From Gigantopelta aegis (taxonomy: Eukaryota > Mollusca > Gastropoda > Neomphalida > Peltospiridae): a stretch of DNA of 64,000 nt. Below the pieces are notes generated by a model. It searched no databases. It was not told the DNA's origin and saw nothing but the letters and a program-made list of their open reading frames with translations. A program made the translations under genes and the position numbers. This document shows, in pieces, positions 4,701 through 41,851 of this stretch. The stretch is from positions 52,349,417 through 52,413,416 of the forward strand of contig NC_054707.1 in the NCBI RefSeq assembly GCF_016097555.1, written 5' to 3'. The first letter of the stretch is position 1; each line of letters starts with the position of its first letter.

Positions 4701-7700
4701 GTCAGTTCTTTGGGCACTAGCGAAAACTTCTATGAGGGTTAGTGACTTTCTCAAACATTTGTCAAACTTTGATTATTATACGCCATTAGAAATTGACATT
4801 TTATTCTGAATATTTGTGTTTCTTCAGGAGAGTGACACACCCAGGTCTGATACAGACTCGGAAGAGGAAGAATATCGAGCTCTCAGAATGCTTACGAAGA
4901 AACCAAGTCCTGTCAGCAATTTCAGTCGAGATAGTGTTCGCCAGTCTCTTAGCAACCGTCCAGAGATGTTTCGGTGGCTGGAAGCTCAGGAAAAGCAGCA
5001 GGCTCAGTTCGATAAGAAGGTGAGAGCAACTGTAACTGGCCTTGGTGGTGTGGTGGTTAAGCCTTCAGAATTGAGGCTGGTAGGTGCTGGGTTCACATCC
5101 TCATACAGGCTCCCTCGCAGAGTTTGTTTTTAATATTCATTAGGGGAGGTATAAGGTCACTGCAAGAACTTCCCAGATATCGCTGTGAAAACAATTGAGG
5201 GGATTGATTAATTGCTTCCCTTACTTAGATTATGGAAAGCCACTGGGCATTGATCCTTTTGTAGTACACTTTCTTTTTAAAATTTTACATGCTAAGAGGA
5301 GCTAACAATTTCTTTCCTTGAACTAGTCTCAGGGGAGTGATAGGGAGCCAGAATGATGGGTAACCAAAGTGATAGCTCCCCTTAAATGGTGAAGGTTGAC
5401 CTCACTGTCCCTAATAACTAACAACTTAACATTAACCACAGTCCTGAACAGGCAGCCTAGATACCCGAGATGTTGGCCGGGACAATATATTTGAATCTGA
5501 ATTGGATATAAGCACAAAATGAAAGTTTAAATTAATTAACTTATATATATTATATAGCTGCCAATATTATTCATCCAATATACTCTTTTAAATTATGGAT
5601 CACATGCATTAATATGTTTTTAAAATTAATTTTTATTTATGTTTGAAGGGAAATAACTCTTACAAAATAAATAGAAGTTAACAGACTGGATGTTATAATC
5701 TTTGACTGTTAATTAACAAGAGTAACTGGTATGTTGGCTGTAGGTATTTTGGTGTATTAAAATGTGTGTATTTTGGTATATTAGAATGTGCCTGCAAGCC
5801 TGTTTTCTGGTTTCTGTTTCCAGTTTGATGAGCGAACAGCTCCGGTTGGTGGAAATGGCCTGGACACAGAAGCTGCGTCACCTTCAAAACCACGGTGTGT
5901 CCTCACTTGCGTAAACTTTCTGGCAAAAACATTATATACTTTACTAAATTAATGCATAATTCTAAATTAATTACAAGCTTGTACATCTTCATACAAATTG
6001 TTCTTATATCTGTAAACCACGATTCTATTGGCATAGCTTATGGTGAAAAAATGCTAGTAACTGTGTATTCTGTATGCCTGTATAAACTGTAATGTGTTAT
6101 GTTTTACAATACTTAATTAAAGATATAGCAGCAAGTAAAGAACACTTTAATTTTTTTTCTAGGAATTGATGTTAAGGCTATTATTTTAAGTATGAATGTA
6201 TCTTAAACTGTTTCTTGTAGCAATGTTCTAAATATTAAAAAGGGTATTTGTAAGATTGTTACCAGTAGTTATTGTTGTTATATTTATCCAGGGATACATC
6301 AGTGGCCCTGATTTTGAAGAATGATGGTGGACCACTTGGCATACATGTTATTCCAGATCTAGATGACAATGGAAGGTGAGATGCTCGCATAGTCTGTATT
6401 TTAGGTCAGGTTGCACCACTCAACATAAATATGTCATTGAGATTTTTGTCACTTATAATCTTGAGTTTCTAATACCTGACTCATTAACTATAGTGAAATT
6501 GATTTGAAAACGTTCAAATATTAACACACTTATCTTAATTCACAGTCTTGGCTATTTGTAATAAAAATAACATATCCATTTATGAGGCCAGCCATATTAA
6601 AATGCTCTAATTATAAAAATGTTAGAAACACATTTTTGTGTCCAGGTTTAAAAAAAATTCTATCCTTAGTTGTTAAAGAGTTTTTTTAAATTAAAACTGT
6701 TGAAAGCGATACCCATATATATACAGTATGCAAGTTTGTGTATAAGTTCTTTCATATAGTGTTGGTACTGTTGTGTTGCAGGGAACTTGGTCTAATGATT
6801 CAAAGTATTGAACAAGGTGGCAAGATACAGCGAGATGGTAGACTGCAAGTGCGAGACAGAATCACCGAAATCAACGGTGTTTCTCTCTTCAATGTCAATT
6901 TCGACAAGTAAGTGTGTAGAATCACCGAAATCAATGGCGTTTCTCTCTTCAATGTCAGTTTTGACAAGTAAGTGTGTAGAATCACTGAAATCAACGGCGT
7001 GTCTCTCTTCAATGTCAGCTTCAACAAGTAAGTGTAGAATCTCTCAAATCAATGGCGTTTCTCTCTTCAATGTCATGCTAAGAGGAGCTAAAAATGTCTT
7101 TCCTTGAACTAGTCTCAGAGGAGTGATAGGGAGCCAGAGTGATGGGGAACCAAAGTGATAGCTCCCCTTAACTGGTGAAGGTTGACCTCACTCTCCCTAA
7201 CAACTAACAACTTAATATTAACCACAGTCCTGAACAGGCAGCCCAGATACCCGAGATGTTGGCTGGGACAGTATATTTGAACCTGAATTGGATACAAGCA
7301 CAAAATGAAAGTTTAAATAAGTAATTGTGTAGAATCACTGAAATCAACAGCGTTTCTCTCTTCAATGTCAGCTTCAACAAGTTAGGGTGTAGAATCACCG
7401 AAATCAACGGCGTTTCTTTCTTCAATGTCAGCTTCGACAAGTAAGTGTGTAGAATCACCGAAATCAACGGCGTTTCTCTCTTCAATGTCAGCTTTAACAA
7501 GTTAGTGTGTAGAATCACTGAAATCAACAGCGTTTCTCTCTTCAATGTCAGCTTCAACAAGTTAGGGTGTAGAATCACCGAAATCAACGGCGTTTCTTTC
7601 TTCAATGTCAGCTTCAACAAGTTAGGGTGTAGAATCACTGAAATCAACAGCGTTTCTCTCTTCAATGTCAGCTTCAACAAGTTAGGGTGTAGAATCACCG

Positions 7701-41851: not shown

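What the first reader, a model, noticed from the sequence alone, without database searches (positions are those of the whole stretch)
6782..41158. One gene, many arrays: tandem copies seeded on splice junctions of PARD3
Five of the 20 donors in the window (6908, 17652, 19826, 24968, 27354) sit in the first unit of a tandem repeat made of exon end + GT site + intron start, with unit lengths of 60, 70-77, 66, 75 and 49 bp and no sequence relation to each other. The last acceptor (41158) borders a sixth array whose units resemble 3' splice sites, and the acceptor at 27134 ends a diverged duplication. Ordinary minisatellites should fall at random in some 37 kb of intron; five independent hits across a 2-base donor are hard to credit to chance. 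Possible causes are break-and-repair at R-loops or at stalled polymerase near 5' splice sites, or a local process that copies exon-intron borders. It differs from the known model of intron gain by duplicating an AGGT exon segment, because here no new exon results.
Basis: partly seen in the sequence, partly recalled or inferred. Interest (0 to 1): 0.88.

Follow-up and report, generated by a model that had tools for sequence, protein, structure and literature searches.

The report
Snail gene with repeated splice junctions
In one polarity gene of a deep-sea vent snail, five of twenty exon ends have been copied in tandem into the intron behind them, the same oddity ('mirages') that was described in lancelets, which suggests that short duplications arise at, or survive best at, the start of introns.

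Summary
The gene is PARD3 of the vent gastropod Gigantopelta aegis: the spliced frame matches its RefSeq protein (100% identity reported over 1104 aa; one 3-residue microexon difference). Five of 20 donors (6908, 17652, 19826, 24968, 27354) lie in the first unit of unrelated tandem arrays with 49-76 bp units; the other 15 show no comparable duplication. With exons protected, 0.36-0.52 arrays should span a donor by chance (P 1.6e-5 to 9.1e-5); site by site, 5 of 20 against 2.8% of intron positions, P 1.8e-4. No acceptor (0 of 20) is spanned. The 37-bp array stops 8 bp before acceptor 41158; the duplication claimed at 27134 ends 131 bp before it. The kind is not new: amphioxus genes carry it as 'mirages' (PMC3087553, PMC3902484). 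New, within my searches, are the phylum and five in one gene. Likeliest: short, exon-biased tandem duplication, visible where it straddles a donor because the exon-proximal donor keeps the mRNA intact, then minisatellite turnover. R-loops find no support. A splicing-linked mutation process is not excluded; a genome-wide count, which I could not run, would decide.

The parts
6782..6907 (+). PARD3 exon (PDZ1); its last 50 bp form the exon part of array A1
   Evidence: frame match to P0001
6858..8171 (+). Array A1 across donor 6908: 17 units of 60 bp (50 exon + 10 intron), with a 4-5 unit higher-order pattern; 14 of 16 later units keep GT
7076..7319 (.). 244-bp stretch of a dispersed element that interrupts A1; 94% identical to 5290-5532 in another intron
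17617..19036 (+). Array A2 across donor 17652: 18 units, 70 bp at first and about 76 bp later (35 exon + 35 intron in unit 1); 14 of 17 later units keep GT
19812..20259 (+). Array A3 across donor 19826: 7 units of about 65 bp (14 exon + 51 intron); 5 of 6 later units keep GT
24958..25113 (+). Array A4 across donor 24968: 2 units of 75-76 bp (10 exon + 66 intron) with a 7-bp GACCTTC repeat at its edges; the later unit keeps GT
27338..27540 (+). Array A5 across donor 27354: 4 units of 49 bp (16 exon + 33 intron), 5-bp repeat AATGT at its right edge; 2 of 3 later units keep GT
38982..41149 (+). A6: 37-bp array (57.6 copies) ending 8 bp before the exon at 41158; of 97 AGs in 38982-41160 (41158 included) 85 score 5 or more as acceptors; does not include the exon
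41158..41851 (+). open last coding stretch of PARD3 (with a coding 24-bp repeat at 41323-41581)
28925..28933 (+). 9-nt microexon CCATTACTG that accounts for PITV in the RefSeq protein

Best explanation
These are 'mirages': minisatellites born as a single tandem duplication of a 49-76 bp segment that happened to straddle a 5' splice site, then enlarged by slippage or unequal exchange. Shown: unit 1 is the functional exon end plus donor; the copies lie in the intron, mostly keep GT, and change as if free of coding constraint; the arrays are unrelated and differ in divergence. Inferred: short duplications arise in and around exons more often than in plain intron; those inside exons or over acceptors are mostly removed by selection, while those over donors survive because the exon-proximal donor, transcribed first, is still used and the copies are spliced out. 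The donor enrichment would then be mainly a survival filter acting on exon-near duplications, not a machine that copies splice sites.
For: Arrays and unit 1 at the donors. The RefSeq protein passes through all five junctions with the exon-proximal donor. 36 of 43 later units keep GT. In 35 of those 36, splicing there would add an in-frame stop; the exception (19891) shifts the frame. Of 34 distinct exon-part changes 33 could be classed: 23 change the amino acid, 10 do not. Edges with 7 and 5 bp repeats (A4, A5) and near-blunt edges (A1, A3) fit slippage or end-joining (A2 not read). A1 has a higher-order unit pattern and one dispersed element inserted in it, as in an ageing minisatellite. 0 of 20 acceptors spanned. 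Purely intronic arrays are not enriched in donor-like motifs: the best donor score in the unit was reached by 12-100% of random segments (8 arrays), so the GT motif itself is not the seed. Same structure in amphioxus genes.
Against: The survival filter alone does not explain why donors exceed plain introns (5 of 20 against 2.8%); it needs an exon-biased duplication rate that I could not measure, and exon interiors show no excess (21 of 853 anchors in a first unit, 2.5%), which selection could hide. Donor against acceptor is 5 to 0, only P about 0.06 by a two-sided sign test (my arithmetic), and amphioxus has an acceptor-side mirage (PMC3087553). The five donors score weaker than the other 15 (P 0.036, crude recalled matrix), which the filter does not predict. 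No RNA reads were seen. The edge-exclusion mark of minisatellite turnover is seen in A1 (unit 1 against others 0.894, others among themselves 0.929) but not in A2, A3 or A5.
Confidence: 0.6

Rival explanations
1. Splicing- or transcription-linked mutation: recognition of the 5' splice site in the nascent RNA (pausing, R-loop, nicks) breaks the DNA there and repair leaves a short tandem duplication.
For: About 14-fold excess over the seed null (5 against 0.36) and about 9-fold over intron sites (25% against 2.8%); donors only; five unrelated arrays in one gene.
Against: No difference in GC skew, GC content, exon-side CpG count, intron length or exon length between the five donors and the other 15 (P 0.28 to 0.83). 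Seeds reach 10 to 50 bp into the exon, with no common register. Edges read in four arrays carry 0-7 bp repeats as in ordinary slippage.
Confidence: 0.2
2. Chance plus selection of a striking window: arrays are common in this genome and this gene was noticed because five fell on donors.
For: The window was selected by a reader from an unknown number; unfiltered placement of the full arrays gives P 0.21; repeat content of the species is 64.17% in one draft (PMC7736800 passages).
Against: With exons protected P is 1.6e-5 to 1.8e-4; the same structure recurs in several amphioxus genes.
Confidence: 0.15
3. Retained for function: extra donors attract U1 and help weak 5' splice sites or shield the intron from early polyadenylation.
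For: Array donors are weaker (scores 9.0, 7.6, 3.2, 5.3, 3.2; Mann-Whitney P 0.036 against 15 others); most copies keep GT (36 of 43).
Against: n is 5; the matrix is recalled and crude; the weakest donor of all (35295, 1.8) has no array; in A1 11 of 16 later units have a changed (9, GTTAGT or GTTAGG) or lost (2) donor.
Confidence: 0.05

Closest known systems
Amphioxus 'mirages' (Adh3, globins BflGb6 and BflGb9, troponin C, PGBD5)
   Same: Minisatellite-like tandem repeats whose unit spans an exon-intron boundary; many units carry splice signals; regular splicing is reported in amphioxus for Adh3 and the globins (PMC3087553 and PMC3902484, passages read).
   Different: Gastropod mollusc instead of cephalochordate; five in one gene; all at donors, whereas BflGb6 is at an acceptor; unit 49-76 bp against 10-72 (Adh3), 150-160 (globins), 60 and 108 bp (PGBD5); length polymorphism not tested here.
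Intron gain by duplication of an AG/GT proto-splice site (Rogers model, as cited in PMC3087553)
   Same: Tandem duplication at or near a splice site.
   Different: No new intron or exon results and none of the five donors has AG before GT.
Ordinary intronic minisatellites
   Same: Unit size, copy number, higher-order pattern in A1.
   Different: First unit contains the coding exon end and the used donor; position is not random here once exons are protected.

Membership tests
mirage (exon-intron boundary minisatellite) | tandem unit spans an exon-intron boundary | tested here: met
   5 arrays, unit 1 holds exon end and donor
mirage (exon-intron boundary minisatellite) | many units repeat the splice signal | tested here: met
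   36 of 43 later units keep GT
mirage (exon-intron boundary minisatellite) | normal splicing is kept despite the copies | tested here: inconclusive
   RefSeq protein uses the exon-proximal donor at all five, but it is a gene model and no reads were seen
mirage (exon-intron boundary minisatellite) | length instability between haplotypes or somatic cells | not testable with these tools
   one haplotype only
mirage (exon-intron boundary minisatellite) | edge unit left out of homogenization (reported for BflGb6) | tested here: inconclusive
   seen in A1, not in A2, A3, A5; A4 has two units
AG/GT-duplication intron gain | duplicated segment carries AG|GT and a new intron appears | tested here: not met
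   bases before GT are AA, GG, TT, AA, TC; the protein runs through the junctions unchanged
R-loop-linked breakage | G-rich, positive GC skew downstream of the donor | tested here: not met
   skew P 0.83 for 5 against 15 donors; of the five only 17652 is G-rich, skew 0.84

The most novel reading that the evidence does not exclude
Active 5' splice sites are themselves hot spots of short tandem duplication in animals as far apart as lancelets and molluscs, through a mutation process coupled to splicing or to transcription across the site; mirages are its fossil trace and a standing supply of decoy donors and of raw material for new introns.
Probability: 0.2. Interest if true: 0.85.

Novelty: new member of a known kind. 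Interest (0 to 1): 0.5.

Why it matters
It carries a structure that, as far as my searches show, was reported only from lancelets into molluscs, and gives five unrelated cases in one gene with a donor-only pattern. That turns 'why do arrays sit on splice sites?' into a countable question for any chromosome-level genome: exon bias plus a survival filter predicts arrays at donors and in tolerant coding stretches whatever the expression; a splice-linked mutator predicts donors of genes expressed in the germ line. It also warns annotators: copies of splice sites can mislead gene models, as the 37-bp array seems to have done for the last exon here.

Tried and rejected
Unfiltered random placement of the full arrays (P 0.21) was rejected as a null because it lets arrays swallow exons. 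R-loop or G-richness: no difference. Arrays as hidden coding exons: in-frame stops before 35 of 36 GT-bearing copies, and 23 of 33 classed changes nonsynonymous. Donor-like motif as the seed: 8 purely intronic arrays are not enriched. Decayed duplications at the other 15 donors: none comparable; the best is 1702 (z 3.3, 0 of 60 shuffles as high), and that alignment lies wholly in the intron. On the acceptor side one search shows strong intron-side similarity at 41158 (the 37-bp array, z 19.7) and a weaker one at 35154 (z 7.1, positions -43 to -20, near the array 34840-35045); neither spans its junction. Acceptor 41138 inside the 37-bp array as the true acceptor: it fits the phase only if exon 38391-38452 is skipped; RefSeq includes that exon, so I keep 41158, but weakly, because the alignment of this C-terminus to Haliotis and Patella is poor past that exon and 41158 scores only 1.3. 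One of 15 pairs among the six arrays (A4 with A6) scored above all 100 shuffles (27 against at most 25); I take it as AT-rich chance. Exon-part conservation above intron part in A2 (substitutions 0.049 in the exon part, 0.134 in the far intron part) is not seen in A3 (0.164 and 0.072), so I draw nothing from it. No Rfam family reached its threshold in the window. Literature: of the papers listed (25 of 1,216 shown; 16; 3; 12; 3; 4; 1; 2) I opened seven, and boundary-spanning arrays appeared only in the amphioxus ones; PMC12783039 (earthworm metallothionein, passages) has intron-1 minisatellites and fourth-exon duplications, PMC2632668 (amphioxus VCBP3, passages) has partial exon copies in introns. 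The 2002 Adh paper is not held, so I know it only through the two papers above. Papers seen: passages of PMC3087553, PMC3902484, PMC7736800, PMC12783039, PMC7931591, PMC7895826, PMC2632668; outline and abstract of PMC4039745.

Full report
What the window is. The spliced frame of the window's exons matches 'partitioning defective 3 homolog [Gigantopelta aegis]' (P0001); the search reports 100% identity over all 1104 aa sent. The one difference up to there is PITV in P0001 where my query had L, explained by a 9-nt microexon. The next best hits are Haliotis at 54% and Patella at 48% identity. The species is a gastropod of order Neomphalida from deep-sea vents. Exons in the window are 1507-1701, 3603-3733, 4828-5019, 5824-5894, 6292-6375, 6782-6907, 8644-9146, 10440-10579, 11010-11150, 15221-15472, 17091-17651, 19680-19825, 20686-20825, 24860-24967, 27135-27353, 28925-28933, 34063-34231, 35154-35294, 36333-36816, 38391-38452 and 41158 onward. 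The reading frame is open through them (without the microexon and with another last junction; for the last exons). The first 80 residues of P0001 were not found in the window.

The arrays. TRF gives the six arrays at the stated places. Cut against unit 1, they hold 17 (A1), 18 (A2), 7 (A3), 2 (A4) and 4 (A5) units. The donor lies 50, 35, 14, 10 and 16 bp into unit 1. Later copies keep GT in 14 of 16, 14 of 17, 5 of 6, 1 of 1 and 2 of 3 units. The five show no similarity to one another beyond shuffles (10 pairs). A1 has a 4-5 unit higher-order pattern and is cut by a 244-bp piece of a dispersed element that is 94% identical to 5290-5532, which speaks against an assembly flaw.

Is it more than chance? 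Three nulls. (1) Seed placement with exons protected: expected 0.36 donor-spanning arrays of 13, seen 5, P 1.6e-5 (the coding array 41323-41581 was left out); over six TRF thresholds (12-15 arrays) P 2.5e-5 to 9.1e-5. (2) Sliding the full arrays: with exons protected, mean 0.43 and 0 of 20,000 trials with 5 or more; without protection mean 3.47 and P 0.21. (3) Site test: 5 of 20 donors lie in a first unit against 2.78% of 8189 intron anchors, P 1.8e-4; 0 of 20 acceptors lie in a last unit; exon interiors give 21 of 853 in a first unit. The other 15 donors show no comparable duplication. The window was chosen by a reader, so these values are not corrected for the number of windows read.

Side claims. 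The 37-bp array ends at 41149, 8 bp before the exon at 41158. Of 97 AGs in 38982-41160 (41158 included) 85 score 5 or more as acceptors, while 41158 scores 1.3, the lowest of the 20 acceptors. RefSeq ends in QPR. With exon 38391-38452 ending in phase 2, an AG of the array followed by ATGA gives exactly R and stop, so the model seems to have used an array copy; a stretch of 230 codons stays open after 41158. Reads would decide. The duplication near 27135 ends at 27003.

How it likely works. The copies look uncoding: 23 nonsynonymous and 10 synonymous distinct changes. Use of a later donor would add a stop in 35 of 36 cases, so correct splicing must prefer the exon-proximal donor; the RefSeq model does. 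Edges show 7-bp (A4) and 5-bp (A5) repeats and near-blunt joins in A1 and A3; A2 was not read. This fits slippage or end-joining duplication. A duplication over a donor leaves the exon whole; one over an acceptor offers the scanning spliceosome an earlier AG, and one inside an exon changes the protein. So a filter favours donors over acceptors and exon interiors; that step is inference from general knowledge. The filter does not explain the excess over introns, which needs exon-biased duplication or a splice-linked process. Neither was measurable, because the genome search did not complete. Features that would support R-loops are absent. Array donors are somewhat weaker (P 0.036, n of 5 against 15, crude recalled matrix); this is a lead only.

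What is known. Amphioxus 'mirages' are the same kind of thing: in globin genes BflGb6 (acceptor side) and BflGb9 (exon 3' boundary), in Adh3, and by citation in troponin C and other loci; [quoted passage not shown] Among the papers that my searches listed and I opened, none reports them outside amphioxus; most subscription papers are not in that library. Verdict: a new member, in a new phylum, of a known kind, with an unusually dense and clean case. Interest 0.5.

Noticed in passing
38391-41158: The RefSeq protein of this gene (1371 aa) stops at ...YQPR, as if its last junction used an AG inside the 37-bp array; a stretch of 230 open codons from 41158 is then lost from the model.
   Followed up: partly
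28925-28933: A 9-nt microexon (CCATTACTG) between good splice sites, which accounts for PITV in the RefSeq protein; the Haliotis and Patella proteins fetched lack it (MDTLEEES, MDTLDEES).
   Followed up: partly
37504-37728 (-); parts also at e.g. 10214-10442, 9376-9576, 30612-30819, 13245-13404, 58599-58780: A dispersed element, with pieces at about ten other places in the window, that holds a short minus-strand reading frame; its translation has 2071 relatives at E <= 0.001, and the 120 listed are all unnamed ENA proteins.
   Followed up: partly
41323-41581: A 24-bp coding tandem repeat ([12 protein letters not shown]) in the last exon, the one array of the gene's TRF list (period 20 or more) that lies inside a coding exon.
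   Followed up: no
15599-16940: A 1.3-kb array of 30-bp units (TCATCATCA-rich) fills most of the intron 15473-17090, starting 126 bp after the donor.
   Followed up: no
52569-54286: A 1.7-kb stretch with several AC and ACAT simple-repeat blocks downstream of the gene.
   Followed up: no
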